DNA of 64,000 bases, taken from positions 29,499,501 through 29,563,500 of the forward strand of contig OX485805.1 of the NCBI GenBank assembly GCA_950295325.1. The letters are read 5' to 3'. The stretch comes from Polytrichum commune (Eukaryota > Streptophyta > Polytrichopsida > Polytrichales > Polytrichaceae). Position numbers and translations under genes: made by a program. Of the stretch, positions 11,482 through 59,628 are shown piece after piece (positions within the stretch are counted from its first letter, which is position 1; each line of letters opens with the position of its first letter). The notes beneath the pieces were generated by a model. It was not told the DNA's origin, made no database searches, and saw only the letters and a program-made list of their open reading frames with translations.

Positions 11482-14400
11482 ATGGTTTTTAGTGAGGGCG
11501 ATGGACACATCACGTTCGACAAGTTCGGCCGCAACAAATTCAATCTTTATAAGTTCAAGTTGGAGATAATGATGTTCACCAAAGATCTTTGGGAGATCGT
11601 GGAGGGTTTGGAGTTGCCGCCACTGTTCACGGCGAGCGACAAGGTTAAGAAGGTGTACGAATGGTGATGCAAAAAAAATTTGCCATCATTGCCATGAGTT
11701 TGGCGGACAAGGAAATGACGCATATCAAAGGGTGTAAATGACCGGTAGAAGCATGGAAGACCTTGTGCAACATTCACGAGACCAAAAACTTGTCCAACAT
11801 CTTGTTCGTAAGGCGCAAGTTCTTTACTATCAAGATGGACGAAGGCGCCGACATCCTCGACCATATCAACAAGGTAAAATCCTTCGCGGACAAACTCACG
11901 TGCTTGGAGGTGCCCATGAAAGACGATGATGTATTCATGACCTCGTTGGATAGCTTATCACCCTCGTTTAACCATTTGATCACCACATTGGAGACGCAAC
12001 CATTTTTGGAACTCACGTTGGACTTCATCACCGCACGCCTCATGTACGAGGTGTCCAAGAGGAAGGAGAATGAGCCTCGAGGAGGTGATGTGGCCATGTT
12101 GTCACCCCAACCTCGAGCGTTCGACAACAACGAACGACACCCCGAGGTGCTACAATTGTGGTAAGTTGGGCCACATTGCTCGCAATTGTCAAAACAAACG
12201 CAAAGTGAATGCAAAAATTACAAGTTTGAGCGATGATATTGCATTTATCTTGAGAGATGAAACATCTAACACCGCCGCCACTAGATGGATTGTTGATTCG
12301 GGGGCCTTGCAACACATGACACAACATAAGTATTTTTTTGACACTTACGAACCCGTCTTGGGTCGCAAAGTGCTTATGGGTGATAACGGCATTGTAGAGG
12401 CCGTAGACAAAGGCTCTATACTAGTAGAAACACGTGTGAAAGGTCGTGTGCGGAGCATTAGAATGCATGACATGCTTCATGTGCCAAAAATGCATTCAAA
12501 CTTGCTTTCGGTGAGCAAACTCATTTCGAGGGGTTTGAAGGTGCATTTCAACTCGTTGGGATGCGTGGTGAGGGCAAACAATGGGGAGATGTTGGCCGTT
12601 GTATAGTTGGAATATAATTTGTACCAATTGAACACGAATGTGATGAATGGGGCCGAAACGAGTTCTTTGGCGCGTTCCGATGGGAACTCGTATTATTTGG
12701 AATTTGGCACAAGAGGTTGGGGCATCTTAACGTGAATAGCGTGAAAATGCTTCAAAGCATGGTGAGCGGGATGGACGTGGGAGCGGGGAAAGGTGATGCG
12801 CATTCATTCGCATGCGAAGGATGTGTGAAGGGCAAACAAGCGAGGCAATCATTACTGACGGATGGAGATACCCGCGCCACGAAGATCTTGGAGCTCGTGC
12901 ATTCCAATGTATGCGGGCCGATAAAAATCATGTCCATTGGAGGCGCAAGGTATTTTCTCACATTCATTGACGATTTTTTGCATAAGATTCGGATGTATGT
13001 GCTTAAGGCCAAAAGCGAGGTATTGGCAAGGCTTAAAGAGTGGAAAACCTTGGTGGAGAGGCAATTGGAGCACGTAATGAAGGTTCTTAGGACGGACAAT
13101 GGTGGGGAACATGTGTCAAAGGTATTTGATGATTTTTTGAGCAAACATGGCATTGCATGGCAAACCTCATTACCTTACACGCCGCAACAAAATGGAGTGG
13201 CGGAATGATCGAACCGAACCATTGTGGAGATGGCGCGATTCATGCCCAACGCCTCGGCCATGAATTTTGGGCGGAAGCGGTGTGCAATGCGGTGTACATG
13301 CGCAACCGGTGTCCAACCAAGGCCGTGGATGGTAAGACACCCGAGGAGGTGTGCAGCGGGAGGATGCCGCACATCTCCCACATGCGCGTTTTTGGTTATG
13401 TGGCTTATACGAAGGTGCCGGATCAAAGGCAAACGAAGTTGGACGCGAATGACGTCAAGTGTTTATTTTTCAGATTTTATGAAGGCACCAAGGCGTATCA
13501 ACTCATTTGCTTGAAGACGAAGAAAATCATCAAGAGTCCAGACGTGGTGTTTTTCGAAGACAAAACAGATTTGAAGGATTGTCCAAGTGGGAGAGTTGAG
13601 GAAGTACCCGTGGTCAAGGTGGACATATCTCCAAATCGGACGTGGAGGACTTGGACGCGAGCGGCAACGTCTCGGAGCAAGACGAAGAGCACGACATCGA
13701 GGAGGATGCGGAGACCAACATACCGGCTGCAAAATCCACTCGTAATGGAGAGACATCGAAACTTAACCATGGTAAGAAAACCGCAACCAAACCACTTCCA
13801 CCACTGCAATATGGCAATGAAACCATGGGCAATTCTAGATACCCGGATAGGCCACGCAAACTGCTTGGGGAATGATTGAAGAGCCACTTTCCGAAACCCC
13901 AAGACAAAAAACATTCAAACATGACAATCGTTGGGGAACCTAAAAACTTGAGAAAGGTAATTGAATCGAGTGATGCAAGCGAGTGGGAGTTGGCTATGTA
14001 GAGGAATATGAATATCTTATAGCCAACAGCACGTGGGAGTTAACTCCATTGTCTAAGGGCCGCAAGGCCGTAAAGTGTAAGTGGGTGTTTCACACGAAGA
14101 AAGATACGAGAGGCGTGATAGTGCGTTTTATAGCAAGGTTGGTGGCCAAAGGGTTCTCGCAAGTGGAAGGTATAGTTTTTGGCGAAACATTTGCACCCGT
14201 GGCCAAATTCAACACCATACGAGCCATCCTCGCAATCGGGGCCGAAATGGGATTGGAGATGTATCAAATGGACGTCAAGACGGCATTCTTGAACAGCGAA
14301 TTGGACGTGGTCATCTACATGGAACAACTGGAGGGGTTTGTACAAAAGGGTCGGGAACATCTCGTATGCAAGTTGAAGAAATCGCTCTACGGATTGAAGC

Positions 14401-15513
14401 AATCCGGACGAGCATGGTACGAGTGCATTCATATATTCTTTGTGAATAGAGGCTTTATGAGGAGCTATGCGGACCATTTGTTGTATGTTCTACAAACGTG
14501 CGACTACATTGTGATTGTAACTATATATGTAGACGACCTCATTATCTTGGCAAGTAATGTGGACATGATCAACGAGTTGAAGTCAAGCCTCGAGTGCGAA
14601 TTCGAGATGAATGACCTTGGCGAGTTGCATTTCTTCCTTGGAGTTCATTTCGAGAGGGACATGAGGATACACACATTACCATGCATCAACAAAGCTACAT
14701 CGAAATCATTTTGGAGCGATTCGGCATGGGTGATTGCAAGCCCATCGCAACCCCGTTCGACACCAAAACCTCATTGGCAAAGCTTTCGGAGGAGGAGTAC
14801 AAAGAGCATTTACACGAAATGAAAGATATTCCGTATCAAGGAACGGTGGGGTCGTTGATGTACGCAACGGTGGCCACAAGACCGGACCTCGCATTTGTGG
14901 TAATCGTGGTAAGCCGATTTATGTCGAAACCAGGTCCGATGCATTGGATGGCCATCAAACGAATCATGCGGTATTTGAAGGGCACTTTAGATATGAGGTT
15001 GTGTATTGACGGCCAACATATCGGCATAAAAGGTTATTCCGATGCGGTGATGTGGAAAACCGTAGTTCCACCTTGGAATACATTTTCTTTGTTGGAGAGG
15101 GGCTTGTTTTGTGGAATAGCAAACGGCAACAAACAGTGACACAATCTACAATAGAGGCGGAGTACATGGCCATGAACCGATGCACGAGGAAGGCCATTTG
15201 ACTTAGGTAGCTAATGAAAGACATAGGTTGTGTACAAGAGGAGGCGACGACTATGATGTGTGACAACCAAGGTTCTATGACACTCGCCAAGAACCCCACC
15301 AACTATGATAGGTCGAAACATATAGATGTGCAACATCATTTTTTTAGAGAAAATATTAAAAACAAAATTATAGAGTTAGAATGTTGTCCAACACAATATA
15401 CGATAGCAGATATTCTAACAAAGACATTAGCGAGAGATAGGCATGAGTTGTTAAGTGAAACAATGAGGTTGGAGTACAATGTCATCTCGCAAAGTGAGAG
15501 TATTGGAAGATAA
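11482..15513 (+). pseudogene. Ty1/Copia retrotransposon gag-pol, frameshifted
   Basis: All Copia domains appear in canonical order but are broken by frameshifts and stops. Gag starts at ATG 11482 and shifts frame after 11667; it has a CCHC knuckle CYNCGKLGHIARNC at about 12150-12190. The protease motif WIVDSGALQHM is near 12283. The pre-integrase zinc region (LGHLNVNSV to CEGCVKGKQ) is at 12717-12840, and the integrase core (TFIDDF, LRTDNGGEH, PYTPQQNGVAE) at 12900-13208, with an in-frame stop just after. Reverse transcriptase covers 13983-14670, with KWVF, DVKTAFLN and catalytic YVDD at about 14528-14540. RT then changes frame near 14680 (FGMGDCKPIATPFD). RNase H includes the MMCDNQGSMTLAKNP motif near 15260, and the frame ends with a stop at 15511-15513. 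At least four frame breaks make autonomous activity unlikely. Confidence 0.93.
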
Positions 15514-16490: not shown

Positions 16491-16830
16491 CTTAGGGTTG
16501 TTTCACACAGGCTCCAAAGTCCCAACTTGTGAACCTCAAGTAATCACTGAAATATGGTTAAATATCATTAAAGTCGGATCTCGATTATTTTATGCAAAAA
16601 TATTTTTAAGACTTGTGTCAAGTGTCAAGTCTAGCTTTTTGCTTGACCCAACTCGCAACACAAGTCCCAAACCTCACCTCCCAAAAAAATCACCATGTAG
16701 GCATCCATGTCATAGTTGGGACTTAGGACTTGGGACCCGTGTGAAGTGGTAAGTCCCAACTTCCATGCTCTCAACGGTTGAGATTGCATGGATTGACCTC
16801 ATGTGACTTGGGGCCCCGTGTGAACCGGCC
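16491..16830. mobile_element. Probable MITE with GGG/TTCACAC-type termini
   Basis: The left end 'agggttgtttcacacaggc' and the right end, read on the other strand ('aggggccggttcacacgggg'), form imperfect inverted repeats, followed by CCAAGTC-like sequence on both sides. The left flank is TTA and the right flank TTC. Terminal style matches the other MITEs in the window. Confidence 0.45.
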
Positions 16831-16904
16831 CCTTCCTAGTGGTTCGAAGAACCCTTCCATGTTTTCTTTATTTAGACAGTCGCAGGGGTTAAGAATGCAT
16901 ATAA

Positions 16905-17229
16905 GGCCCAAACCACACGGGAGGAACGGCAATGAGTTGGATGAATAGCATTGGTTCAAATGAGCAAGTGGTTGCCACATGAGAGGAAGTATGGGGAGTG
17001 GCAACAATGACTTTTTAGCTTCGGATTTTGCTTTGGATCTTGCTTCGGGATCTACTTGGCAATAAAGTAGAGTGACATGGCACAATAAATGTGGTTCGCA
17101 ACTACTGGGCACTAGTGCCCGGAAGTTCACAATATAAGGAGAAAACGAGGAAAAAGAGACTTTTCTTGGGCAAGGTGCCATGTTGGAGGAAGTTGTGAAA
17201 CTTCCTCTGCCTCTCGTGTGGCAAGGGCC
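16905..17229. mobile_element. MITE family M2, copy 1 (GGCCC...CCACACG termini, TAA target duplication)
   Basis: About 325 bp, nearly identical to 59254-59580. Inverted ends: 'ggcccaaaccacacgggagg' on the left versus 'ggcccttgccacacgagagg' read inward from the right. Flanked by TAA at 16902-16904 and 17230-17232. An apparent open reading frame across it also occurs in the other copy, but it has no motif. Confidence 0.85.
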
Positions 17230-17232
17230 TAA

Positions 17233-17800
17233 ATTCAGAAGCAAAAACCTTGCTGCAGGGACAAATAATGCTGCCCTGTTGGCCCTCCCATTCAACTTTG
17301 CTGGAGCTGATCAACAACGTGGATCACGGGCCCGCACATTGATGGATGCAAAAGCCAAGGATGAAGACGAAGTGATTAATTACTCAAAGAAATCGATTGA
17401 TGGTCTTGAGACACACACGCGTGCATGGGAAATGCACGGGGGAGTCACTCAAGTGGAGGCCACACATGCCCAAAACCCGGAGGTTTGGACCAAAAATCGT
17501 TTTGGACATGGGGCCACACTACATGTGCAAAATGAGCCGCCATTTTCGTTAGTTTAGTGACATTCCACCTCAAAGATGACTGGTTTACGGAAAAGATTGA
17601 AATATCAATTTTCAACATCTAGACCCGATCTTGCAATTTTTATTGGATCCCAAAATGATGGGTTGTGTTTTCTTCCCATCTTTTTTCAAGAGTTGGCAGT
17701 CTGGTGGGAAGACAGACCTCCCTTCCCAGTTGCCAGTTCTATGAAGAATCAACCTCTTATTTAGTTCCTGGTATTCTAGGAAGGTGACGTTAGTGGGAGA
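17233..17800. other. No gene recognised
   Basis: Open frames of up to about 125 codons overlap the MITE end and have no recognisable motif. No RNA gene was seen. Confidence 0.4.
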
Positions 17801-17829: not shown

Positions 17830-18423
17830 CCCCTTCAATCTTGTTCATCCTTGAAGCAATTTACGTGCACATTTATCTTCAAACTTCATTTCACGATTAG
17901 AATCAGAATTTGGAACATTTCCTTCAAGGGTTATTCCCACCTCGACACAATAAACTTCATGTATAAGAGGAATCTGCAGTGCCACAGTGGAAGACATTTC
18001 TCACTTTTCATGTTCCCGCACTCGAACAAATCAACTCATGATTTCAAAGTCTTGGACTTGCAGATTCAATGGGGAACCCACATGAACCAAACTATATCCT
18101 TAGCTTATGTGCACGTTACGCTAAAAGCACACTTGTCTGTTAAGCAGAGTTCCCTTCACAATTATCAGGACGATTTGGAGTTTCTTTATTGAGACTTTAT
18201 TTGTTTATTATTTTTATTTGTTTATTTGTTTTGATTATTTTATTTTCTAAATTCTTTTTAAGGATTTGGAGTGTTTCGTTTAAGGAGAAGGGGTCACATT
18301 CCCATGACCTGATCAACGTAAGAAACTTAATTTATAAGAGGCTTCTACACTGCCGCAGAGGAGGACACTCTTACTTTTCACTTCCCCTCACATGCAAATT
18401 TAAAGCTACACTCGAACTGATCT
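17830..18423. repeat. Left part of a decayed repeat array, interrupted by the transposon nest
   Basis: Phrases such as 'gaacaaatcaac', 'catgatttcaaa' and 'gacttgcagattc' (18020-18070), and a second degenerate unit at 18250-18420, recur at 26520-26620 and 26800-26940 on the far side of the 18.4-26.3 kb nest. Units are diverged, roughly 250-400 bp. Confidence 0.45.
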
Positions 18424-18527
18424 GTCGTGTAAATACCGATCGTGTGTCACTGCAGCTCAAGTACCAACCACCACTAACAAACAACACTAAAATATAGCAA
18501 GGTCACACATGAACAACACATCTCGAC
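18424..18527. repeat. Direct repeat A, left copy
   Basis: About 104 bp, nearly identical to 18866-18970. It contains 'taccgatcgtgtgtcactgc' and ends '..catctcgaca'. Read on the - strand it begins TGTCGAGATG, like an LTR 5' end. Confidence 0.85.
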
Positions 18528-18863
18528 AAAGAAGGAAGATAGTAGAACACTCATAAGAGTTCTAAATCTCTTTTCAAATGCACATAATTAGTCAAACTAT
18601 CTCTCATTCCACCAAGGGAGAATCCAAGAGTGTAAGTAGATGGAGAAGAACTCAAGATTTATTGCAAATCATGCAATCTACACCTCACACAAGCTCTCTC
18701 CACACACTAACTTACAAGACTTGACTTGGCAAGAATGCCAAGCCAAGGAGGAGGCTTCTTACTTAGGAGCCTCACTTTCCAAAACTAAGGTTCATCCATC
18801 CAACTCTAAATGGATGAAGCCCACGGGATAAGGTGCGGCCGCCGACGCCGCATACCGTGACAG
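18528..18863 (-). repeat. LTR-like direct repeat B, copy 1
   Basis: About 335 bp, over 90 percent identical by eye to 22769-23105. Read on the - strand it begins TGTCACGGTATGCGGCG and contains AATAAA ('gcaataaatcttgag'), consistent with an LTR. It lies exactly between the two copies of repeat A. Boundaries are taken from where the two B copies stop matching. Confidence 0.75.
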
Positions 18864-18865
18864 CT

Positions 18866-18970
18866 GTTGTGTAAATACCGATCGTGTGTCACTGCAGCTC
18901 GAGTACCAACCACTACTAACAAACAACACTAAAACATAGCAAGGTCACACATGAACAACACATCTCGACA
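18866..18970 (-). repeat. Direct repeat A, right copy; likely start of a 3' LTR on the - strand
   Basis: Read on the - strand, the polypurine tract 'aaggggggca' (complement of 18971-18980) is followed directly by TGTCGAGATG. This is the classic PPT/LTR junction for the - strand Gypsy module at 19.3-21.2 kb. Confidence 0.7.
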
Positions 18971-19294
18971 TGCCCCCCTTAGTTGACTATGGAGTCCCGC
19001 CAAGCAGCTAGGACCAACGCCAATCTAATGGTATGGATAATGAAGGATTGCTCCGCAACCAACTAGCGTGGCGAACGTCATCCCAAGAAACTGTAGGCTG
19101 GGTGCAATGTGAGCCCCATCCTTAATCGCCTCTGATGGTTGGCCATCGGATTCCACAGAATTAATTTCACCGCCTCATGTCGATTGGGTATCTAAGCCAT
19201 AACTTCCCATCTTCCATTTGGGCAGGCACAATATAATGAAAACCACACATGATCATTAAGTACGATTGGTGGGAGCACCAAGTACCGAAGATCC

Positions 19295-20287
19295 TTAACA
19301 TTGAGGACAACTCCACTGTCCAGATGGTAGAGAAGTCAAGGGTGGCCTCAAGCATGCCATGTGCCAACCACGTTGACACTGATTACACAAGAGCATAGTA
19401 GCCACCCCTTTCTTCTCTCCACACACAAAACATGGAAGACCCTCTGGCACGATGGCCAGTTCAGGATGAACTGTACCCTCAATGGGTAGATGACATGGGG
19501 CACAGTTTTTGGAATGCTCGCGACATTCCCTGCCATCCTTGTCTTCCAACAACAACAAACCACTCGGCAACACCTCCTTCACCCGAAGGATAATGCGCCC
19601 CGCCCTGACATCCAATGTCGTAGGCGCCTCATGTTGAAGATAAACAAAATCCCCTTGCCGAAATTTCTGCAATTGAGGTCAATAAGCACCACTGCGAATG
19701 CGTGCATAACGCAATGTGTCACGGTGTTGAGCAATGGACAAATTCTCCATGGCCATAGGCATGGCTCTATGGAAGAATTGAGCCCGCTCCTGCAAACACT
19801 CTGCCCAAATGTTTGGGTCATCCAAGTCCACAACAAGAGTTAACTATTCCCGAATAGAACTCGGGAGAATAGGCTCACGTCCATACAATAACTGATACGG
19901 GCTGTAGGATGCCAAAGAGGCTTGCCTACTAAATCGATAGCCCATAGCAATTTAAGGCAACATGAGGTCCCAATCCCGGTGGCTTCCCTGAAGTAATCCA
20001 TACTTCCTCAAACCATGCTTGGTTGTCTGAACAACCCGTTCAGCCAAGCCATCTGCCTCCGGATGATCCCGAGAGGTGGTACGGTGATCTATGAGCACCC
20101 CAGTGCACAACTCCTTAAAAGCACCAATGAACTCCCTCCCTTGGTCCGTCAACACCTCAGCCGGTGCTCCAAAACGTGTTAACACACGATCCAAAAAGGC
20201 GGCCGCGGCCAACTCTGCAGAGTTTTGGGGTAGAGCAACAAGCTCAATCCATTTGCTAAAATGCTCCACCATCATGCAATGCCACAA
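19295..20287 (-). pseudogene. Gypsy integrase fused to a C-terminal PHD finger
   Basis: Read 5' to 3' on the - strand, the fragment begins in the integrase core (MMVEHFSKWIELVALP near 20270). It continues through VLTDQGREFIGAF (catalytic Asp, about 20135) and HPEADGLAERVVQT (catalytic Glu, about 20050), then YQLLYGREPILP near 19890. A linker follows (FRQGDFVYLQH; GRIILRVKEVLPSGLLLLED). It ends in a PHD zinc finger at about 19295-19430 with the full C4HC3 pattern: C-x2-C, C-x2-C, H-x2-C and W-x2-C-x2-C (CFVCGEKKG; LLCNQCQRGWHMAC; GQWSCPQC). The N-terminal zinc domain and first catalytic Asp of integrase are missing, and stops occur near 19850 and 19945, so it is a relic. A PHD finger where chromoviruses carry a chromodomain suggests chromatin-directed integration; that is inference. 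Confidence 0.85.
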
Positions 20288-20290
20288 CTA

Positions 20291-21175
20291 TCATAGAGAC
20301 AACCACTGGTTATCACGATGCCTTTGCAATGAAAGGCATAAAACAACAGTCCATACTATGGTATGAAGATCCATGGCTTGGCCCAACACGAAGCGTCGTT
20401 GGCCCTTAGAAAGGTCGGGATCTGCGGTGGTGCCAGTGCGGAATCCTATAGCACGCTCCTGTTCGTCAGCCATTGGTTCGGTGTGGGTTTTGGTGTGAAC
20501 ATCCCACACCATACCTGGCCCCCGATCGCGAAAAGCGAATGACTGTGGAAATGTCATAAATGTGGGAAAGGCCCGCTGTGGTGCCCTTACTTTATTGACC
20601 AATGCCAACGGGGGTAAATCATCTCGAACAACCGGCAAAGAAGTCCGGTTTGGATCCAAGATGTCATTCACCTTTTGATCAAAAGGTGGAGGCACTGCAA
20701 AAAATGTTGCAGCTAAAGTAGATGACGGTGTGAGGTTGGTCCAAATCCACTAAGGCTGGTGGCCATAAAAACCAATGCTCGCGGCATCCACAAAAATGGG
20801 ATCTCCAAGGTGTTGACGAACATAATGATCGCCTTCCAATACCTTGTCCCGAGAGTTTCTCAACAAAGATACATTCTAAAAAATATACCCTGGAGGGGAA
20901 GGTTGGTGGAAAAACCACCACTGCATGAGGCGGATGAGGTCCCAAAATAGACTAGTCCTGGGATCCTCTAGTCCTCCGCCTGCTCCAGCACGTGAATGGC
21001 CCTGGCATGGCCATCCCGCAATCACCATATCCACTGGATCCAATTGTCGTAAGTCGGCCTCACTGATGAGTGTGACATCACGAGGGAGATGTGAAAAACA
21101 TCCATTAATGGCAGTCGGGTGTAACTGCTGAGGATACAATACCATCAACTGGTGAACATGGTGGCTGAGCGACAC
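20291..21175 (-). pseudogene. Retroelement-borne Dnmt3-like cytosine-5 DNA methyltransferase, inactivated
   Basis: C5 methyltransferases transfer a methyl group from S-adenosylmethionine to cytosine in DNA. Read on the - strand, visible motifs are VDMVIAGWPCQGHSRAG (motif IV with the catalytic PCQ Cys, about 21040), then GLEDPRTSLFWDLIRLMQ, then PPGYIF followed by a stop exactly where the ENV motif (VI) should begin (about 20880). Next come DPIFVDAASIG and WTNL (motif VIII region, also with a stop), GPGMVWD, EPMADEQERAIGFRTGTT, and RRFVLGQAMD near 20385, resembling motifs IX-X. Motif I is missing: the coding stops matching near 21175, where + strand gag starts. The order and the 'GLEDPR..LF' context resemble Dnmt3/DRM-type enzymes rather than MET1 or CMT. 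Two nonsense codons and the absent N terminus mean it is not active. It lies directly upstream of the integrase-PHD module in the same orientation. Confidence 0.8.
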
Positions 21176-21179
21176 TTGC

Positions 21180-22835
21180 GGAAGCTTTCACCATTGTTGA
21201 GCAGTGTGATCGTGCCTTGTGTCAGCACGACGCCACTGACTTGGTGTCCATACTAATGGATTCTAGCAAATCCCGGAAGGTTCCGGTTGCGGCTGCGAGG
21301 TTGGCGGAGGCAGAGGTGGACAAGACCTTGCATTGTTGGTCTTGTGGGCAGGTGGGCCATGCTAAGAATGATTGTCCTTCGAAGCAAAGGCAAGCCCAGA
21401 CCGTCACTACTTCGAAGCGGAATCCATTTGTTCCCGCTAAGGGCTCGGCGAAGGGGGCGGGTAAACAATTATCCAAACAGTTGAAGTGTTCCCATTGTGG
21501 GCGGAACAATCATGCGGTAGAGAACTGCTTCGGTCTCCATCCAGAGAAACGTTCTTATTCCGAACGGGAAAAAGACGTTGGAGGCAAAAATTGGTGTCTT
21601 GGAGAAGAGGTTCAAAACTTTGGCGTCATCTAGCCAAATTTTGGACTCACCCTCTACCTCTGGCACTAAGGCTAGTTCATCCACTCCAGATTATTTTATG
21701 TTCGGAGCTTAAGGATAGGTGGTGAGTTCCGTGGCGGTGACACATGCTCAAACTGTGTCACGAGGCGCGCCTCCGACCAAAGGGGAGTCTGTGGACAGCT
21801 TACGTGCTGGGGACAATGGTCCCGCGGATCAGATTGGCCAGGCACGTCTGCCATTGTCTTTTGGTTTGGTTGATGTTGCCCAATCTATTAGTGCTTGTCA
21901 TTTGAGCTTGGAGGCTTCGAATCCGGCGACCGATGTGGTGCACACTTTGTAATCTAAAGTGTTGCACACTCTTTTGTTCACAGTAATGGAGTGGTCATCA
22001 TCGGATGTCCAACCCGCTAAGGTTTTTCCACCTAGCAGGTAGGATTTTGGAGGGCAAGGCATCCCCGCCTTCTTTGACTGTAGCTCAAGCCACCGCGGAC
22101 CTTCCTACCACGGAAAATTCGGAAGAAGCGGCCAAACGGCGAGCGAGGCTTGCGGCTGAGGCCATTGCATCTTTTAACGCACACACCTTAGATGGCCAAG
22201 ATCCAACCTCATCTTATGATTCACCAGCCTCTGTAGGCGCCGCTTACCTTTCAAATGTAGCTGCTCGACCTGCTTGCGAGCGTCGAGGCATTCGACCTGG
22301 CGTTGTACGGATGGTGAATGATTCTGGCATTTTGATGGTCAGTCGGGCTGGTGACAACCCTATTCGAGTTGCTCCACAGTGTGTGATGATGGATTCAGGA
22401 GCACAACCTGTTATGATCGGCAAAAAATTGGCGTAGGCATTGCAGTTGACAACCGACGACTTGGCTTCATGCCCATTTACCATCGTCACATCTATTGGCC
22501 ACGTGGAGCGGGCCACTGGTTATATTTGGGAGCCATTACAGCTTCGCTTCCAAGTGAAACTTGGAGATTCACCTGCACCTCTTCTTCTCATGTGTGTGGT
22601 GACGGATGCGACCAACTATGACATTTTAGTTGGTCAGCAAGCACTTTACCCCCTCGGTTTTGGTTTGGACAACTGGACTGAGGAGGCTTGGATCCGACCA
22701 GGTTGGTCAGCTGGAGACGGCCGTAGGGAACTTATTCCTGTGGCCTTTGCAGCTGCATTCTTGCCAAGTGAGAAGGAAGAGAGTAGAACACTCATAAGAG
22801 CTCTAAATCCCTCTTCAAATGCTCACAATTAGTCA
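21180..22835 (+). pseudogene. Gypsy gag (two CCHC knuckles) and retropepsin fragment
   Basis: A + strand module facing away from the methyltransferase/integrase module. Gag: EVDKTLHCWSCGQVGHAKND forms a CCHC knuckle at about 21325-21380, and a second Cys-rich motif CSHCGRNNHAVENC lies at 21487-21530. After a frame break, the protease motif VMMDSGAQPVMIG sits at about 22384-22425. A second frame then continues as retropepsin (TNYDILVGQQALYPLGF near 22610-22665) until it runs into LTR-like repeat B at about 22769. No reverse transcriptase follows. Frames shift at about 21630, 21960 and 22437, so it is dead. It may be the 5' part of the same family as the - strand module, inverted by rearrangement; no sequence proof. 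Confidence 0.8.
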
Positions 22836-23105
22836 AACTATCTCTCACTCTACCAAGGGAGAATCCAAGAGTGTAAGTAGATGGAGAAGAACTCAAGATT
22901 TATTGCAAAATCATGCAATCTACACCTCACACAAGCTCTCTCCACACACTAACTCACAAGACTTGACTTGGCAAAAATGCCAAGCCAAGGAGGAGGCTCC
23001 TCACTTAGGAGCCTCACTTTCCAAAACTAAGGTTCATCCATCCAACTCTAAATGGATGAAGCCCAAGGGATAAGGTGCGGCCGCCGACGCCGCATACCGT
23101 GACAG
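22769..23105 (-). repeat. LTR-like direct repeat B, copy 2
   Basis: Second copy of B, same orientation as 18528-18863. Together the two copies flank a 3.9-kb region. Unlike copy 1 it has no repeat A at either side. Confidence 0.75.
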
Positions 23106-23938
23106 ATCAATTATGATCTTAAAGTGTCGGGGCTCAACAACCTTTCTCATTACTCTCTCTGTAGATGGAGGAAGATGGGAAGAAAGATCCGCCTAGGAAA
23201 AATGATGGAACGTCGTAGAAAGAGATGGCGGAGCCCTGCCGCTCCGAGATCTGAACCTCAACAGGGTTGTCCTGAGATTTGAATACGATTGTGAAGTGAA
23301 CACGGATCCTAACGCACAGGAGAGTGAACAAGGTAGGTAGGAGTAGACACGAAGCCAAGAATCGTGAGGCTCTATAGCAAGATTCAATAAGATTAGAGGT
23401 GAACAACAATGGAAATGTAGATCAGAGAATAGTAAACTTGAGAAGGGATGGCTGCAGGAAGATAATGTGATCTAGTGTTGGTCGCACTAAAGCAAGGCAA
23501 GTGGTAAGAAGAAGAGCGTGAACCTCAAGATCCAATTACTATTGCAAAGGCCACAAGGTGGGAAGGGTAAATCGAGAATCAAAGTTACAGAACAGAGCAA
23601 ACGGAAGGCGCCAAGTGATTGAGGATCGTTGACTCAAGGAGGGGGATGGAGACGTTTGCGGCCAAGGTTTGTTATGGATACGTGCAACGTTTTGATCCAA
23701 TGATGGAAGAGGAAGGAAGCTGGATTGCGGGAGTGGAGAAGAAACACGACGTGGAGATGGAAGATGCGATCTTGGAAGGATTGGCGGAAGCAAGTCAGTA
23801 GAGCGGAGGAGGAGATGTCAACCCCTTTAAAGGTCATAATGGTGAGATCCTCCCATTAGATCTGGAAAGGAGCTTTAGTGGTTTCTTAAATTCTTAGTAA
23901 GAAAGGACGCCATTAAATTTTAAATCAATACGGAAAAG
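23106..23938. other. No gene recognised between repeat B and the LINE
   Basis: Open frames of up to about 90 codons on both strands lack any motif. May be internal or 5' sequence of one of the retroelements. Confidence 0.35.
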
Positions 23939-23939
23939 T

Positions 23940-26272
23940 TGCTTGTATGTATTGAGTGTTTGAAAGATCAGCTCCTTATAGGCAAGTTTGTTGGCCCCAA
24001 GCCGCCACCACAAACGATGAGAATGTGGATCCAAGCTCTTAACCAAGAACTGAGAGATTTATCCAAACTATTAGGCACCCCCTTTGGGCTAAACCTCAAT
24101 ATTCACGACGTAGATAGCTTTCTATACAGGAAAATTGCGAAGAATCTAGATTATTGGAGTAGCATGAAGCTTTCTCTTGCCAGGCGGGCGGTAATTTGTA
24201 ATCAGGTGCAACTCTCCACTCTGTGGTTCTTCATCACGGTCTGGGGAGGGTCAAATAAAATTTTGAAGAAGATTAGGGGCGCAATCCGTAATTACATGTG
24301 GTCCGGGAAGGAACAACTTACGCGTACGATAGTAAGTTGGAGAGAATGTTGTCTAAAGAAGAAATATGGAGGCCTTGGGTTAGTGGATCCCCATGCGGCC
24401 AAAACTAGCCTACTATGGAAATGGATAGTTAGGGCCATGGAACCCGGTGAATCAAATCTCCAACTTATGCTTAGATAGAGGTTAGCCAGGTTCAATCCAC
24501 AAAGAGGAAGAAGTTGGGGGGTAAGCCTCGATTGGTTTACAAATAAACAACACCAAGGCTTTCTGGGATCAAAGATATGGAGCCACATTAGCAAAGCGTG
24601 GAAGGTCATGGTTAAAGGACTTTATCAAATTCCCCCTCGCACTAGAATGGAATTACTGCACTCTAATATATGGTGGTCCGATGGGGTAGAACTTTTAACT
24701 AAAGGATTCACATACGCTAAAGGGCTCCACCTTTACCGCCAAGGCATCCAATGTGTAGACGACATATGGGATAGTAATGTACAAGAATTTATTACATGGG
24801 ATAGAGCGCGTGAGAAATTTAAACTTTCGCCTGCGGAGGAGGGGGACTGGAAAGAGGTGATGGAGAAGATTGCAAGACAATGGCGACACCTGCTAGAGGT
24901 TGATTCAGACACTACCTACCGTGGAAAGTGGATTGGTTTTTATGTGAACATGGAAGTAGACCTGGCCTTTGTGTTATGTAGTGACACCGATTTTGCAACA
25001 CCATGCATGCAATGGCATAATCTCACATTGCCTATCCTAGTACAATGTTTCACGGTTGGCACCCACTCGCGGTGTTTAAGTGTGTGGAAACATCCTCTAG
25101 GTGAGATGGCAGGGTTTTTTCATGAGGTCAAGGTCATTAACACCAATAGAGGACCTAAAAAGGAAGGAGAGAAAGAGAAAGAAGAAGTGATGTTCTTCTA
25201 TGGTAAAGTGGCCTCCCACTGTTGGGATCTAGATAGGTGGAGGTGGATTGATGAAGTTCACTTCTTGGACTATTAATAATACTAAGGACAGTAGGGAGTC
25301 CATAATTAATAAGAACCCGGGTACAACCCGGGCGGCAGAAAAATGGCAGGGTTACCTCCTGGGCAATTACAGGTTCTACTAGTCACTAGTCTGGGATCCG
25401 CTTCGAGCAGGGAAAGAGGCCGCCTTTATGTGGTCAATTTGGCACAAAGCCATGGCAGTGAATGAGTGGAGGGCCCGCATTGCTCCGGCATCAATTTCCA
25501 AACAATGTGTCTTTTGCCTTCCTAACACTAGTGAGTCGGTCGAACATAAGTTTTGGGACTGCATCCAAGCACGGAGAGCATGAAGATGGGGTACCTTCAT
25601 TATGCATGAATTGTGTGGGGGTTAGGTTTGGCAACTATGATTGTTTTAATTGGAAGCAAGCTTTGTTTGGGGAAAGGATCCCCAAAAAATACGGCAAAAA
25701 GATCAAAATCTGGCACCTCCTTAGAGGTATTACTTTGTGGACCATTTGGATCGAGAGGAACGACAAAGTGTTCAACCATGAACAATGGCATGAGTCCAAG
25801 GTCAAACATCGGATTTGGGACGAATTGATCATCTATGCCAATGCGGCTTGGAACTGGGTTGTGGAACAAATCAAAATCAATAGATTTGCGACGGAGGCTA
25901 TGCTGCAGGGTTCCGACAAAACGTGGGGGCCTAGGAATGTGTTATGTAGAAGGCACAATTTGTTCATTGAGTGGAATCGGAAAAGGCAACTTAGATAGGG
26001 GTCAAGCTTGTGCTTGTGGGTGGTACTTGGGGGTTTGGGGTTGTCCTTGACCAGTGGGGTGGGGGAGGTCCTTGGCTTGGTGGGTGTGGGGGTTGTCCAT
26101 GATGGTGATCGGGTCTTTTGCTTTTTACGTGGTGGTGTTTCGTGCCCGAGGGGTCCCGCCTCCCCTCGGTGAGGGCGTGTTTTCTTTTCTCTTGGTATGA
26201 ATTTTTTGGCGTTGGCTTGTTTGGCCTTCTGTCTCAAAAAAGAAAAAAAAGAAAAAAAGAAGAAGAAGAGTC
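23940..26272 (+). pseudogene. LINE ORF2, C-terminal half, with 3' A-rich tail
   Basis: A 5'-truncated non-LTR retrotransposon. From about 23960 the frame carries the region after the RT catalytic core, with WSSMKLSLARRAVICNQV, LSTLWFFITVW, IRNYMWSGKEQ and WRECCLKKKYGGLGLVD at 24140-24400. After a stop near 24478 it resumes at 24608 to 25276. It ends with a zf-RVT-like domain near 25395-25590, with MAVNEWRARIAP, CVFCLPNTSESVEHKFWDC (Cys/His zinc pattern) and ARRAW, in shifting frames. The 3' end reads 'ggccttctgtctcaaaaaag' and runs into an A-rich tail to about 26272. These features fit plant L1-type LINEs. Endonuclease and the RT palm are absent. Confidence 0.88.
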
Positions 26273-27859: not shown

Positions 27860-27908
27860 TTCATTCAACATCGATCTGACTTGGAATTCAACTTTTTAGG
27901 TATTGCAA
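27820..27908. repeat. 89-bp internal direct repeat of the hAT element, copy 2
   Basis: Second copy of the repeat at 27465. Together the copies bracket the ETF-like segment, so the capture was accompanied by duplication of flanking transposon DNA. Confidence 0.9.
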
Positions 27909-29067
27909 CGATGAATTTCCGTGCTTGGGATTTATTGATCGGGTGGCCAATAAGGTGTACGAGTGGTTGGGTAAATCAGTAATTCGTCGTGGAATTTTGG
28001 AGAAATTATTGCTTGCATTCCGTGAAGAGTCTCGTGCAACTTTACAGATCCATTCGGTGAGATGGTTATCCCGTGGCTTGGTCATGGAGAGATTGGTATT
28101 TTGTATGCCTGCAATTTTAGAAATTTGGGAGGTTGAAGAACCCACATGGTACAAGGATCTAACTTCTCTTCAGTTCCAATTTTTCATTCACATGCTAGCT
28201 GATATATTATCAGAGTTGAATAAGGTCAATCGCAAGTTTCAATTTGATCTTGTAGATATCACTAGCATAGCTTCTACGATTGATGTAACAATCAGCTTGT
28301 TTCGTAGACACTATCTGGGTGTAAGTTTTGGCCTGACAACCAAACACCTAGGGAAGTTTCTCCGCGAGATGGTACCCAATGGGCAAATATTGTATGTTGA
28401 TAGTTTTGGGTGTGAAAAAATGCATATCTTGCATTATGATTCCATGCCCGAGTGTGACGTAGGAGGCTCATTGGAGGCATGCATCATGTTGGGGAGGCAG
28501 TATGTGCAGAAGATCATCGATTCACTCAATGATCGATTTCCTGACTCGTCCATTTTCAATGCGGCCCGGCTTTTTAGCCCGAAGCACTATCCCGTAGATG
28601 AATTGGACAGAGGGACATTAACGGAACAATGGTTGAACCGGTTGGTGACACATTTCCGTTGGAGCGATGACCTTGTTAATCAATGCAATGCGGAATTGCT
28701 AGAATTCGTGGAGATGTTATGTTCCGTTTGTGAACGCCGAAGTATGCAAGAAGCTTGGGTTTTTTGTGGCAATGACCGGGAGTTCATGATTAATTGGCCA
28801 ACTATGATGTCGCTATGGCAAGCCATACTTGTGATCCCAACTAGCACTGTTGTTTGTGAGCGTGGTTTTTCAAAGCAAAATTGGGTTAAGAGTGAAAGGA
28901 GAACTAGACTCAACCTTGACACACTAGATGCTTTAATGAGGGTTAGTCTAAATGGGTTAGGAGTTGAATTCATGGATTGGGATAGTATTTTTGAATCTTG
29001 GAAAATTGGCACAAGAACCAACAAGCGTAGGGCATTATCACTAGAAGAGGTGGAGTTAGATGGTTGA
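27899..29067 (+). CDS. hAT transposase, C-terminal part with dimerisation domain
   Basis: An uninterrupted frame of about 385 codons ends at the stop 29065-29067. It appears to begin as an exon after an acceptor at about 27899, reading YCNDEFPCLGFIDRVANKVY, typical of the central region of ZNF862/DUF4371-type hAT transposases. Further landmarks are RWLSRGLVMERL and, near the end, TMMSLWQAILVIPTSTVVCE continuing into RGFSKQNWVKSERRTRLNLD: the hAT C-terminal dimerisation domain with the conserved ST..CER.FS signature. The N-terminal BED zinc finger and first part of the catalytic region are not visible, so the protein is probably truncated, although no stops interrupt what remains. The codon start is uncertain: no in-frame ATG lies near the beginning. 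Confidence 0.85.
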
Positions 29068-31420: not shown

Positions 31421-31564
31421 CATATTTAATCATTTGTTGACCACGAATCAAAATTACCCTGCATTTTCAATTCAAAGACTGAACATCATCTTGTTTGTCA
31501 TTGATGATCAAGGGAACTCGGCAGGGAGAGGGTTTCTCACAGGGACCAGAATCTAAACTGCAAG

Positions 31565-34173
31565 ATGACAGACATCCAAATTCAGATGCCAGGCATGTTG
31601 CCACGCTCCTCCCTCAAGAACTACAACAACGGCAACACAGGTCACGACGATGCGGGAAGATCAACTTCCCAGGACGACCTAATCGAGCCAACATCCTCAT
31701 CTTCAGCCTGCGATTCCGCAGGAGGGTGGTACGAGACCTTGAGGCCGCGAATCTCCCTCCTGCAGAAGGCGGCGGCCGAGCTAATCAGCACATTCATCCT
31801 GGTGTTCGCGGGGTGCGGGGCCATCATGGTGGATGCACATCGGGGCGGGGTGGTCACGCATGTTGGTATTTCCGTCACGTTCGGGCTCGTGGTGGCGGCC
31901 ATGATTTACACCGTGGGCCACATCTCGGGAGCTCACATGAACCCCGCGGTCACCATCGCGTTCGCGCTCACCAAGCACTTCCCGTGGCCCCAGGTGCCTG
32001 TGTATGTGGCGGCCCAGTGCGCGGGGGGGATCGCGGCGTCGTTCGCGCTCGACTTGATCTTGCATCCCGCGGCGTTCGAGGGCGCGACATTGCCGTCGGG
32101 AAGCGACGCGCAGTCGCTGGTGCTGGAGATCATCATCACCTTCGTTCTCATGTTCGTCATCTCCGCCGTCACCACCGACAAACGAGCGGTGCGTGGTTTC
32201 TTCCTAATACTACCCTTCTCATCTATTCAAAATTGGCTTCATTCATTCATTTACTATTAATTTATTGCACTAAGAGCATCACCACCCATCCTACAAAATG
32301 CAGGGTGGATCATCCTCACAATAAGTTCAAGTCACCCGGTTTGCAAGCCGGGTGACCCACCCATGACTTGTATACAAGGTGATAAAACAAGGAAGAAACA
32401 AAAGCAAGATGAATCTCATTGGCACCTTGGAAATTGGAGAGGAATATGGAGTTTGTCCTTTGTTGTTTAGGGGGCTCCCTTTTTGTTTTGGGGCCGGAGC
32501 TCCGACTTGCAAAATGACCCCAATTTGCAAGCCAACCTCAACTTCCAAGCTGGCCCTACCAACAAATCATCCATTTTGCAGGATGGGTGGGGCACTTTTG
32601 CAAGCCGCCTCTCACAATATAAGTTCAAGTCATCCGTTTTTCAGGATGGGTGGTGATGCTCTAAGAGAGAAAACTTGTCCATTCCAATCATCTGTTAGAA
32701 CTTGTCTGTTGTAACTTATGGTGAGAAAATGCACAAATTAAATAAACTTAATTGGCCACCGGAGGTTTTGGGTTGCGAACCACAATCAAAAACCTTTGGT
32801 TGGCAACTGATTTTATTTATTTTATGCATTTTCTCATCATAAGTTACAACGGACAAGGTGCAGTAAATAATTGGAATGACATGATTGGAATCTAGTCCTA
32901 ATACGAAACGATAGGCATTCTCGAGCATAAACCTTTTTGGATATTTTTTGGAACATGTGTGCATTATAATTGTTATAACCGGTTGCTTCCAACAACTCTT
33001 GTGGGTTCTTTTGTCCATGAAGAGGACATTTCTTTTGTAGCTATATTTTACGTCCATGAGTAGACTTGTTATATCCGGTAATGGGCAAGAGTTGATAAAT
33101 GTCTCTAAGTTGCTCTTGCAAGTTGATCATCCACTCTCCTCTCGTATGTTATGTAGTGCATTATAGGCATGGTACCATATGATGGGTTACAATGCAATGC
33201 ATTCCCTACCCTTTTGTGTCCACACATTTGACTCCATAGAGTGAGCATAAATTAACAAAGGGAAGGTTTCCCACTCCACATAGAAATTAGTCCAATGGAT
33301 CAACTTGGGAGTTGTCTCCTCCCGTTAGCCATTGCTATTCGCACAATTTTGATTTTCAAGTTTGAGAATCATTTTGCTTGAGATTAGAAGATTATAGGAG
33401 GTCAAAGCAAAGATCCTCTTTCTCTTGAATTATCACATAAACCTTCCCAATCATGTTAACTAGATACTGAAACTAGAACAGCATTTATATTATGGGCACA
33501 CAAGGGAGCCCCTAATAGGTCAGGATGCTCAATTGACCTTAGGAGTTGTTTGTGCCATTGCTTGCAGTGCGGTGAATTGGCAGGAATCGCCATCGGCTCG
33601 ACGATTGCCTTGAATGTCTTGGTGGCCAAGTGAGTACTGTGACTTTCTATAATTTGGCACTATGAGTATTTTATGAAGACTATGAATCCACTTAAAATTT
33701 ATAGCATTTTTTTTGGAGTTGAAAATATGTGCATAGTGTGTGTGGATGGCGATCCTTGCTTCATAAAACAAGTACAAAATTTACCATTCCAATCCGAACA
33801 GAAATGGTATCATTGGGTTCCTTCGCTCTTTCCAAGCATGTTGCTCCTCCTCGTTGTGTTGTAACAAATCATCAATTCATTAGAAGCATGAGTTGTTGCC
33901 ACCAAGAATATGGTGCATTTGAAGTTTGCAGTCAGTAAATTTTGTGGATCACTGAATGTTTGCAACCATGGCAGGCCGATTTCCGGAGCGTCGATGAACC
34001 CCGCAAGGTCTATCGGTCCAGCAATTGCATCCTCAAATTACCGCGCCCTGTGGGTGTACATCCTCGGTCCAATTGTCGGTGCGGCCGCCGGAGGGTTAGG
34101 CTACCATCTCATTCGCCTCCCAGCGAAGGACATGGCCTGTAATCAAAAACCTGCCAAGAGCTTCCGCCGTTGA
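31565..34173 (+). CDS. NIP-type (NOD26-like) aquaporin, gene 1
   Basis: NIPs are six-helix membrane channels carrying water, glycerol, boric acid, silicic acid or similar small neutral solutes. Exons 31565-32188, 33568-33629 and 33975-34173 give 294 residues, with GT/AG introns. A hydrophilic N terminus of about 65 residues precedes helix 1 ([18 protein letters not shown]). The first NPA box is in [13 protein letters not shown] (Asn about 126) and the second in [14 protein letters not shown] (Asn about 237). Ar/R selectivity residues read from alignment to NOD26: Phe106, Val225, Ala234, Arg240. NIP I proteins have Trp-Val-Ala-Arg, so this is an unusual Phe variant. The loop also has AKPISG where AGPVTG is usual. 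Start: ATG at 31565, the first in frame. Substrate cannot be assigned. Confidence 0.93.
32274..32661. mobile_element. MITE in NIP gene 1 intron 1 (GAGCATCACCACCCATCC termini)
   Basis: Left end 'gagcatcaccacccatcct' and right end 'aggatgggtggtgatgctc' are inverted repeats, with TAA on each side (32271-32273, 32662-32664). Length 388 bp. GAGCATC-type ends and a TAA duplication suggest a Tourist/PIF-like element. Confidence 0.88.
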
Positions 34174-37639: not shown

Positions 37640-37918
37640 GCGACCATTGTTATATGTTGGTAAACCTTTTGTATTTTCCTGAACAGAATCCCATATCATT
37701 AACCCACCAATATCATTGCTAAAAGCGTTGAGAGAAATCAACGCCCTCATTGTTATTTGTATCAAGACCCAGAGTTTTTTGATTACTTTGTAATTTGAAG
37801 ACTAAACATCATCGTGTTTGCCATTAATAAAGAGAAGGCAAGGGTTGTCGGTTTGAAGTTTGTCACAAAGTTCAGAATCATCACTGCAACAACCAACGAT
37901 CGACACAGAATAACACAA

Positions 37919-46676: not shown

Positions 46677-46780
46677 GTAAGGATTGGCAAGCATTGTTAG
46701 TGGTGGGTTGGAATACAAAGTAAGTAAAACTCTCCTTCTGGCTTAAAACCCTCTGTTTAAGATCAAGTGGAGAAAGGCCT
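46677..46780. repeat. Approx. 100-bp direct repeat flanking a non-LTR insertion, right copy
   Basis: Second copy of the 45640 repeat, beginning 'ggattggcaagcattgttag'. Confidence 0.85.
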
Positions 46781-59145: not shown

Positions 59146-59253
59146 GGAGTTATGTGGTGGGTCATAGGGGTGCATATGGCAAGTACACACAAGCATGGGG
59201 AGCATATGCTTGCATGGGCTTATGGGGTTGGTTGACATGGGATATCACTCTGA

Positions 59254-59580
59254 GGCCCAAACCACACGGGAGGAACGGCAATGAGTTGGATGAATAGCAT
59301 TGGTTCAAATGAGCAAGTGGTTGCCACATGAGAGGAAGTATGGGGAGTGGCAACAATGACTTTTTAGCTTCGGATTTTGCTTTGGATCTTGCTTCGGGAT
59401 CTACTTGGCAATAAAGTAGAGTGACATGGCATAATAAATGTAGTTCGCAACTACCGGGGACAAGTGCCCGGAAGTCCCACAATATAAGGAGAAAAATGAG
59501 GAAAAGGAGACTTTTCTTGGGCAAGGTGCCACGTTGGAGGAAGTTGTGAAACTTCCGGTGCCTCTCGTGTGGGAAGGGCC
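59254..59580. mobile_element. MITE family M2, copy 2
   Basis: Nearly identical to 16905-17229, with the same inverted ends (GGCCC..CCACACGGGAGG / CCTCTCGTGTGGGAAGGGCC). Flanks are TGA on the left and TCA on the right, so the duplication is not exact. Confidence 0.85.
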
Positions 59581-59628
59581 TCATATGCACGGGTGCAACA
59601 TACCAGGACAACATGGGTCCAAACTACA

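What the first reader, a model, noticed from the sequence alone, without database searches (positions are those of the whole stretch)
19295..21175. Retrotransposon module encoding a cytosine DNA methyltransferase, an integrase and a PHD finger
Seen on the - strand, in order: Dnmt3-like motifs (AGWPCQGHSRAG with the catalytic Cys; GLEDPRTSLF; a C-terminal RRFVLGQAMD), then a Gypsy integrase (TDQGREF, HPEADGLAERV), then a complete C4HC3 PHD finger, then a polypurine tract and LTR-like TGTCGAG start. I recall reports of cytosine methyltransferases acquired by retrotransposons in a few eukaryotes. A methyltransferase placed before integrase, with a PHD finger at the C terminus, would be a striking architecture in a land plant. 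Inference: such an element could methylate its own or target DNA and use the PHD finger to choose chromatin.
Basis: partly seen in the sequence, partly recalled or inferred. Interest (0 to 1): 0.88.

Follow-up and report, generated by a model that had tools for sequence, protein, structure and literature searches.

The report
Jumping gene with own DNA methyltransferase
This stretch is a broken, rearranged copy of a plant jumping gene whose more complete relatives carry a predicted DNA-methylating enzyme and a predicted histone-reading finger; at least 65 copies with the enzyme's sequence lie in the same genome, some with long open reading frames, so whether such a parasite marks its own DNA could now be tested.

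Summary
On the minus strand, 21187-19298, a cytosine methyltransferase, a Gypsy integrase core and a C-terminal PHD finger share one frame (7 internal stops). The element runs 18423-23104, inside a 4-bp GATC duplication. But the methyltransferase-integrase join is a deletion scar: reverse transcriptase, RNase H and the integrase zinc domain are missing, and gag-protease lies inverted. Relatives show the native plan: gag-protease-methyltransferase, a UAG stop (63 of 63 genomic copies that reach it) in a tobamovirus-type CARYYA context (59 of 63), then RT-RNase H-integrase-PHD, flanked by split repeats A-coding-B-A-B. The methyltransferase is DNMT3-like by profile and predicted fold. A Gypsy-Dnmt3 element with DIRS-like repeats is published from the alga Klebsormidium (2018); this is a land-plant variant of that kind. 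Not in the text seen there: a stop predicted to be leaky that would make the methyltransferase at Gag level, a PHD finger, 4-bp target duplications on split repeats, and a second green-lineage order (RT-RNase H-methyltransferase-integrase-PHD). Self-methylation of cDNA and PHD targeting are inferred, untested.

The parts
18419..18422 (.). target-site duplication GATC (left copy)
   Evidence: matches 23105-23108; exact 4-bp duplications in 9 of 10 copies read
18423..18528 (-). repeat B, outer copy (element 3' end, ...ACGACA)
   Evidence: (96% to 18864-18970)
18530..18863 (-). repeat A, inner copy
   Evidence: 13 differences in 334 to the outer copy
18864..18970 (-). repeat B, inner copy; B/A junction ACA-GC-TGTCAC kept in relatives
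18971..18981 (-). polypurine tract CTAAGGGGGGCA-like, next to inner B
   Evidence: same place in L018, L020, L022
19298..19432 (-). PHD finger, C-terminus of the pol frame (stop at 19295-19297)
   Evidence: Pfam PF00628 E 6.2e-11, residues 586-630 of the read
19433..20272 (-). integrase core (from MVEHFSKW on) and C-terminal region; zinc domain and first acidic residue missing
   Evidence: rve E 6.7e-10; 83% identity to L001 ORF2 709-1034; matches L021 8601-10000
20273..20294 (-). deletion junction: methyltransferase tail, ORF1 stop, RT, RNase H and integrase zinc domain absent
   Evidence: L021 6227-8600 has no counterpart; near-same breakpoints against L017 and L019
20295..21175 (-). Dnmt3-like cytosine methyltransferase without motif I; PCQ present, glutamate of ENV replaced by a stop
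   Evidence: PF00145 E 3.5e-11; 60% identity to L001 ORF1 788-1068; 89-92% DNA identity to three genomic copies
21154..22756 (+). inverted gag zinc knuckles plus aspartic protease (DSGAQPVMIG), 83-86% to relatives
   Evidence: zf-CCHC E 7.2e-5; matches L021 3326-4927 in plus orientation; 48% and 60% to L001 ORF1
22771..23104 (-). repeat A, outer copy (element 5' end TGTCACGG)
23105..23108 (.). target-site duplication GATC (right copy)

Best explanation
This is a decayed, rearranged copy of a Gypsy retrotransposon family that encodes a Dnmt3-like methyltransferase with Gag and protease and, past a conserved UAG stop that is likely leaky, a reverse transcriptase-integrase with a PHD finger; the methyltransferase would methylate the element's own new DNA inside the particle and the PHD finger would help choose the insertion chromatin. 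Shown: the domains, the order gag-PR-MTase-UAG-RT-RNaseH-IN-PHD in relatives, the split repeats, the 4-bp target duplications, the deletion and inversion in the window copy. Inferred: Gag-level supply of the methyltransferase (it lies upstream of the stop), methylation of cDNA before or at integration, and recognition of the unmodified H3 tail by the PHD finger. The window copy itself can do none of this: 7 in-frame stops, no motif I, no RT.
For: Native order: L001 ORF1 1162 aa (gag, CCHC, protease, methyltransferase) and ORF2 1047 aa (RT, RNase H, H2C2, rve, PHD); the three full-length copies of the window's subfamily map the same way, and in the second subfamily ORF2 is open over 1047 aa in 4 of 7 copies, with RT to PHD by Pfam in the one tested, L026. 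Stop: of 65 genomic copies read, 63 reach the junction; TAG in 63 of 63, CARYYA next to it in 59 of 63 (CAATCA 25, CAATTA 22, CAGTTA 11, CAACCA 1; exceptions L039, L073, L082, L086) (first seen); L001 has it too. The motif's role is from PMC5382211 (passages). Split repeats A-coding-B-A-B: 3 of 3 copies of the window's subfamily, picked for having two A repeats about 9.7 kb apart, and 6 of 7 of a second subfamily. Duplications exact in 9 of 10. DNMT3 class: profile search gives DNMT3A 69 bits, HaeIII 33, HhaI 27, DRM 27; AlphaFold model of the L001 domain pLDDT 85, pTM 0.88; all 50 listed Foldseek matches are DNMT3 entries. Selection: median dN/dS 0.305 over 20 pairs. Mechanism parallel: DNMT domains of SymbioDIRS elements methylate CG de novo in yeast (PMC5890265 section 10).
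Against: No expression, readthrough, methylation or histone-binding data were available for this host. In the published yeast assay the Klebsormidium Gypsy-Dnmt3 domain gave no methylation, which the authors call inconclusive. The copies behind the stop count are related and not independent. The dN/dS sample took only copies with an open methyltransferase frame, so it leans low, and one young pair (dS 0.023) gave 1.15. A search with the window's own decayed read ranks bacterial-type enzymes (31 bits) above DNMT3B (20 bits). PCQ differs from the PCN of animal DNMT3. Some relatives keep the domain without a recognisable PC or ENV motif, such as P0150 and P0156, so activity is not needed in the whole clade. 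The PHD ligand is guessed from relatives.
Confidence: 0.6

Rival explanations
1. The methyltransferase is kept for a host-friendly or self-limiting effect: it likely pre-silences new insertions, lowering harm and copy-number growth, rather than protecting cDNA.
For: The host genome has two DNMT3-type loci (L046, L047) and a DRM-type exon (L045) that could act on such marks; de Mendoza et al. raise this option in their discussion; 38 of 45 differences between repeat pairs of four copies are transitions, in line with methylated, deaminating DNA.
Against: At least 65 copies, and 0-2 mismatches per repeat pair in six copies of the second subfamily, show recent spread. Transitions do not tell whose enzyme set the mark.
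Confidence: 0.2
2. The methyltransferase has become a structural or RNA-acting part of the Gag-protease protein and does not methylate DNA.
For: Some green-lineage relatives keep the domain but lack PC and ENV motifs (P0150 and P0156 in ORFs with RT and integrase; P0070, P0084 and others with a partly truncated domain); the Klebsormidium domain gave no methylation in yeast.
Against: In the window's own genome ten of eleven loci tried gave an open frame through the domain and all ten keep PCQ and ENV (G_L rows); the invariant and nearly invariant columns include PCQ and EN.
Confidence: 0.15
3. The window locus is a chance neighbourhood of a host methyltransferase gene fragment and a Gypsy integrase.
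For: The methyltransferase and integrase are directly joined and the element is rearranged.
Against: Same order in L001 and genomic copies, complete element ends with GATC duplication, the relatives found are element proteins, and the host's DNMT3-type loci lie elsewhere and outside the element clade.
Confidence: 0.01
4. The gag-protease inversion is native: the family has two divergent reading frames and the window only lost the middle.
For: Both inner ends are cut at one point (21154-21175), as a single deletion would give.
Against: L001 and the full-length copies L017, L019, L021 have gag-protease in the same direction as the methyltransferase. The inverted part is 83-86% identical to these copies and the rest 89-96%, as expected for a piece joined from another copy.
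Confidence: 0.03

Closest known systems
KnitGypsy-Dnmt3 of Klebsormidium nitens (de Mendoza et al. 2018, PMC5890265; abstract, introduction, start of results, sections 9, 10, 11 read; the rest by term search)
   Same: Gypsy domain set, divergent intronless Dnmt3 in the polyprotein, DIRS-like order of repeats, purifying selection on the Dnmt3 domain
   Different: Its main text does not hold 'PHD' or 'readthrough', and calls the acquisition independent in the K. nitens lineage. Figures and supplements not seen; its sequence was not compared here. Here: land-plant host, at least 65 copies, CARYYA stop context, 4-bp duplications
SymbioDIRS-Dnmt3 and SymbioLINE-Dnmt of dinoflagellates (same paper)
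   Same: Retrotransposon with a DNMT; the DIRS type also has A-coding-B-A-B repeats and a Dnmt3
   Different: Tyrosine recombinase or LINE endonuclease instead of a DDE integrase
Ty3/Gypsy and DIRS elements with DNA methylases in green algae and charophytes, as summed up in PMC6338049 (passages), and DNMT3 in retrotransposons of streptophytes in PMC12344493 (passages)
   Same: Says that such elements exist in green algae, so type 2 below may overlap with reports cited there
   Different: Says they are absent from land plants such as tracheophytes; no architecture given in the passages seen
Type 2 relatives found here (P0077, P0083, P0103, P0109, P0125 and others)
   Same: Related methyltransferase and C-terminal PHD finger
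   Different: Methyltransferase between RNase H and integrase; one clade by methyltransferase (96/91), opposite side from type 1 by integrase
Proteins of liverworts: Marchantia polymorpha Mp_4g09160, Mp_6g11220, MARPO records; Calypogeia fissa
   Same: Protease-methyltransferase order with zinc knuckles where long enough; filed as hypothetical or unnamed proteins
   Different: 44-49% identical to L001 over the searched part; P0035 lost PCQ and runs on into RT
Chromodomain Gypsy elements (chromoviruses)
   Same: Gypsy pol with a chromatin-reading module at the integrase C-terminus
   Different: PHD finger instead of a chromodomain (Pfam)

Membership tests
Gypsy (Ty3) LTR retrotransposons | gag, protease, RT, RNase H, DDE integrase in that order | tested here: met
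   L001 and genomic copies; the window copy lacks RT and RNase H
Gypsy (Ty3) LTR retrotransposons | two like direct LTRs, one at each end | tested here: not met
   repeats are split A-coding-B-A-B; so 'Gypsy by domains', not by repeat layout
Gypsy-Dnmt3 elements of the KnitGypsy kind | Dnmt3-related domain within the Gypsy polyprotein | tested here: met
Gypsy-Dnmt3 elements of the KnitGypsy kind | DIRS-like repeat order with Gypsy domains | tested here: met
   3 of 3 and 6 of 7 copies; comparison text
Gypsy-Dnmt3 elements of the KnitGypsy kind | sequence kinship with the K. nitens copies | not tested
DIRS/PAT (tyrosine-recombinase) elements | tyrosine recombinase and no target duplication | tested here: not met
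   rve integrase; exact 4-bp duplications in 9 of 10 copies
Dnmt3 methyltransferases | closest to DNMT3 by sequence profile and fold, blocks in unrearranged order | tested here: met
   (three aligned blocks in DNMT3A order); only PDB chains were compared
Dnmt3 methyltransferases | PCN in motif IV as in animal DNMT3 | tested here: not met
   PCQ, as in the host's DNMT3-type pieces GFPCQDLS
Dnmt3 methyltransferases | grouping with DNMT3 in a tree | tested here: inconclusive
   DNMT3A/B join the element clade (94/82) while the short host rows fall with the bacterial rows
Dnmt3 methyltransferases | de novo DNA methylation activity | not testable with these tools
   published only for SymbioDIRS
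Type I leaky stops (tobamovirus kind) | UAG followed by CARYYA | tested here: met
   59 of 63 genomic copies, and L001
Type I leaky stops (tobamovirus kind) | measured readthrough | not testable with these tools
   needs a reporter
Chromoviruses | C-terminal chromodomain | tested here: not met
   PHD only

The most novel reading that the evidence does not exclude
A mobile parasite of green plants that packs its own de novo DNA methyltransferase at Gag dose through a leaky UAG, writes 5mC on its own cDNA before insertion, and reads unmodified H3 with a PHD finger on its integrase to pick the site; one old capture of a Dnmt3 in a PHD-bearing Gypsy lineage of the green lineage, later moved once between two places in the polyprotein, and integrating by a DDE integrase from DIRS-like split repeats.
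Probability: 0.25. Interest if true: 0.88.

Novelty: new variant of a known kind. Interest (0 to 1): 0.62.

Why it matters
Plants silence retrotransposons with 5mC, so an element that carries the writer of that mark is a paradox. [quoted passage not shown] this genome and the liverwort records speak against that for land plants at large. The family offers young, numerous copies in one plant genome, so the question whether elements methylate their own DNA can be asked with methylomes, reporters and peptide arrays. If the stop is leaky, the enzyme is made in excess over RT, which points to a role in the particle. Split repeats with a DDE integrase also raise the question of how such ends are made.

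Tried and rejected
Rejected: chance neighbours; divergent native frames; a bacterial or phage origin: the viral collection gave 7 loci with 32-55% local identity to the domain, whose surroundings I did not study, and the bacterial rows fall outside the element clade. Conventional LTRs: the polypurine tract abuts inner B in window, L018, L020, L022, and a like tract stands at the same place in L001, while the outer ends are A and B with target duplications.

Led nowhere or weak: whether the rearranged copy is itself multiplied was not tested, as the junction search did not complete; among the 41 repeat-A matches scored out of 941 candidates only the window pair lies 4.2 kb apart. Host name: not found; 28 NAC exon matches that pair into 14 genes, 107 AP2 matches, two DNMT3-type loci, 7 large contigs and 408 Mb fit a bryophyte, by recalled numbers. 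One against two captures: elements separate from DNMT3 with 100/99 and 100/98, type 2 is one clade in both, but whether type 1 is a clade is open (41/85; p-AU 0.08). One search was a mistaken call on a protein alignment. Literature: in the listings (titles and abstract starts) and the passages read I saw no report of this family in a land plant, of its stop codon or of its PHD finger; only the held library was searched.

Full report
What is in the window. The minus strand from 21187 to 19298 encodes, in one frame with 7 internal stops, a cytosine methyltransferase (PF00145), an integrase core (PF00665) and a C-terminal PHD finger (PF00628). Two repeat families bound the element: A (22771-23105 and 18530-18863, about 96%) and B (18864-18970 and 18422-18528, 96%). 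Read on the minus strand the order is A - coding - B - A - B. The outer ends are TGTCACGG... and ...ACGACA, flanked by GATC on both sides, so the element is 18423-23104. Gag zinc knuckles and an aspartic protease (DSGAQPVMIG) lie on the plus strand at 21154-22756.

What it looked like before it broke. A protein search with the frame (X at stops) gave 15 relatives, 43-83% identical; in those long enough to show it (P0005, P0009, P0010, P0013, P0014, P0015) the protease stands just before the methyltransferase. A genome-contig scan found L001, a 9,285-bp contig filed under a cyanobacterial MAG whose ends overlap by 127 bases, as a high-copy element assembles; I take it for eukaryotic contamination. 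L001 encodes gag-CCHC-protease-methyltransferase (ORF1) and, in the same frame after one stop, RT-RNase H-integrase-PHD (ORF2). In the window's own genome (G000, 408 Mb, 64 contigs) PF00145 has 123 scored matches out of 352 candidates; 17 of the 123 lie in open frames of 1,360-1,386 aa. Of these 123, 62 were fetched and read and all 62 are element copies (50.8% identity to the L001 domain at the least); one more, C2:4703606, is a host DRM-type exon; 60 were not read. With three further copies that makes 65 read. Three full-length copies of the window's subfamily and seven copies of a second one were fetched whole or in two pieces.

How the window copy was made. Against L021, L017 and L019 the window consists of the 5' repeat, then gag-protease turned round, then the methyltransferase without its start, then integrase core to 3' end. 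L021 615-3325, 4928-5346 and 6227-8600 have no counterpart, which removes leader, gag start, motif I, the ORF1 end with its stop, RT, RNase H and the integrase zinc domain. The inverted part is less alike (83-86%) than the rest (89-96%), so template switching between two element RNAs during reverse transcription is the likely origin (inference). Repeat A copies differ at 13 of 334 sites and B at 4 of 107, 14 of these 17 being transitions.

The stop between ORF1 and ORF2. Of the 65 genomic copies read, 63 reach the junction (not L044 and L071). The stop is TAG in 63 of 63. The next six bases fit CARYYA in 59 of 63: CAATCA 25, CAATTA 22, CAGTTA 11, CAACCA 1; the exceptions are CAGTTG (L039), CAATCT (L073), TAGTTA (L082) and CACTTA (L086) (earlier counts on fewer copies, where one row, L019, was shifted by an alignment gap). 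L001 has CAATCA. These copies are related and not independent events, but the amino acid after the glutamine changes (S, L, P) while the nucleotide pattern stays. UAG-CARYYA is the type I readthrough signal of tobamoviruses, benyviruses and pomoviruses (PMC5382211, passages). The methyltransferase is thus upstream of the predicted leaky stop and would be made with Gag; RT, integrase and PHD would be the rarer extension.

Repeats and integration. A-coding-B-A-B was seen in 3 of 3 copies of the window subfamily, chosen because two A repeats lie about 9.7 kb apart, and in 6 of 7 copies of the second subfamily, chosen for a 1,386-aa frame on the plus strand; the seventh, L023/L024, showed no repeat pair in the stretch fetched. 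Target duplications are exact 4-mers in 9 of 10 copies: GATC, GGGC, CAAT, GAAG, TTAT, TAGC, CATC, ATTG, ACTT; L019 has GTGT/CTGT (read by eye from the printed flanks). The inner B/A junction reads ACGACA-GC-TGTCAC or one change from it in the copies printed and in L001, a near-palindrome that looks like a joined circle. So a DDE integrase inserts a molecule with DIRS-like split repeats; how that molecule is made is not known. De Mendoza et al. state the same repeat layout for KnitGypsy-Dnmt3.

What the methyltransferase is. A profile of 25 rows finds DNMT3A best in the PDB (69 bits), then DNMT3B (64), above HaeIII (33), HhaI (27) and DRM (27). The AlphaFold model of the L001 domain (pLDDT 85, pTM 0.88) has only DNMT3 entries among the 50 listed Foldseek hits. 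Searching with the window's decayed read alone ranks a bacterial-type enzyme first. In a tree of 48 rows the 41 element methyltransferases form one clade (100/99) apart from DNMT3A/B, two host DNMT3-type rows and bacterial rows; against a clean DNMT3 reading, the host rows, short joins of exon pieces, fall with the bacterial rows (94/82) and not with DNMT3A/B. Without long and bacterial rows the split of elements from the four DNMT3 rows stays (100/98). dN/dS among 8 loci with an open domain: 28 pairs, of which 20 with 0.05<dS<1.5 have a median of 0.305 (0.17-0.60); 7 pairs with L001 are saturated and one pair at dS 0.023 gives 1.15.

Two architectures in the green lineage. The PHD search found 198 proteins, 120 of them listed; of these 120, 40 carry a methyltransferase-like domain in the same ORF. 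Of the 40 with both RT and integrase in the ORF, 14 have it between RT and integrase, 2 before RT, and 24 lack it there (some, such as P0047 and P0048, probably because it sits in ORF1). Named sources include Volvox, Tetrabaena, Astrephomene, Haematococcus, Klebsormidium and Marchantia. Type 2 (RT-RNase H-methyltransferase-integrase-PHD) is one clade by methyltransferase (96/91; 100/100). By integrase the tree splits (100/98) into a side with all 20 type 2 rows and 4 rows without the domain, and a side with all 8 type 1 rows and 18 without it. A number of type 2 domains show no PC or ENV pattern. P0103 looks by its name (GHRQ01002908) like a transcriptome record, so some such element may be transcribed.

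How it likely works. Shown: parts, order, stop context, ends. Inferred: the enzyme is packed in excess and methylates the new cDNA, which could make it look like host DNA, shield it from cytosine editing or set the chromatin of the new copy; such roles were raised for related elements by de Mendoza et al.. The PHD finger is nearest to those of CHD4, PHF12, KMT2D, UHRF1 and KDM5; from recalled knowledge many of these read the unmodified H3 tail, so the integrase may be led to H3K4me0 chromatin. De Mendoza's yeast assay was positive for SymbioDIRS and inconclusive for the Klebsormidium domain.

Place among known things. A Gypsy element with a Dnmt3 and DIRS-like repeats is published for K. nitens, and a 2019 paper speaks of Gypsy elements with DNA methylases in green algae, so the kind is known. 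New in this evidence: a land-plant family with at least 65 copies, the conserved stop context that puts the enzyme on the Gag side, the PHD finger, the 4-bp duplications, and the two domain orders side by side. The 2018 paper's main text holds neither PHD nor readthrough; its figures and supplements were not seen. Host: very likely a land plant of bryophyte type (comparison numbers recalled).

Noticed in passing
window 11980-15136 (+): Decayed Copia element with gag_pre-integrs, rve and RVT_2.
   Followed up: no
window 27880-29067 (+): hAT transposase fragment with Dimer_Tnp_hAT.
   Followed up: no
window 31483-32352 and 37831-38556 (+): Two aquaporin (MIP) exons with similar sequence, about 6 kb apart; other long open frames overlap them.
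   Followed up: no
window 16774-17310 (-) and 59165-59623 (-): A repeat seen twice, sharing the peptide LLCHVTLLYCQVDPEARSKAKSEAKK and more.
   Followed up: no
window 23924-25998 (+) and 45907-46809 (-): LINE-like RT C-terminal remnants by eye; Pfam gives nothing above 0.001 for the frames tested.
   Followed up: no
L001 (CADCWO010000201.1): A cyanobacterial MAG holds what looks like a circularly assembled eukaryotic retrotransposon; P0003 is likewise named after a Candidatus Obscuribacterales MAG. Such elements may contaminate prokaryote bins.
   Followed up: partly
P0150, P0156 (Astrephomene), P0070 (Volvox), P0073 (Tetrabaena): IN-PHD proteins carry a methyltransferase-like domain for which no Pfam DNA_methylase is precomputed and whose PC or ENV motif is missing or changed: possible loss of activity with the domain kept.
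   Followed up: partly
P0035 (Marchantia Mp_6g11220): Methyltransferase with the PCQ loop deleted, running on into RT without a stop.
   Followed up: partly
G000:C3:29567000-29569517 (L056): Another copy of the family lies about 6 kb beyond the window's right end.
   Followed up: partly
L018, L020, L022, L001 B/A junction: Near-palindrome GACAGCTGTC kept between distant relatives although the repeats diverge; looks like an integrase-joined circle junction.
   Followed up: partly
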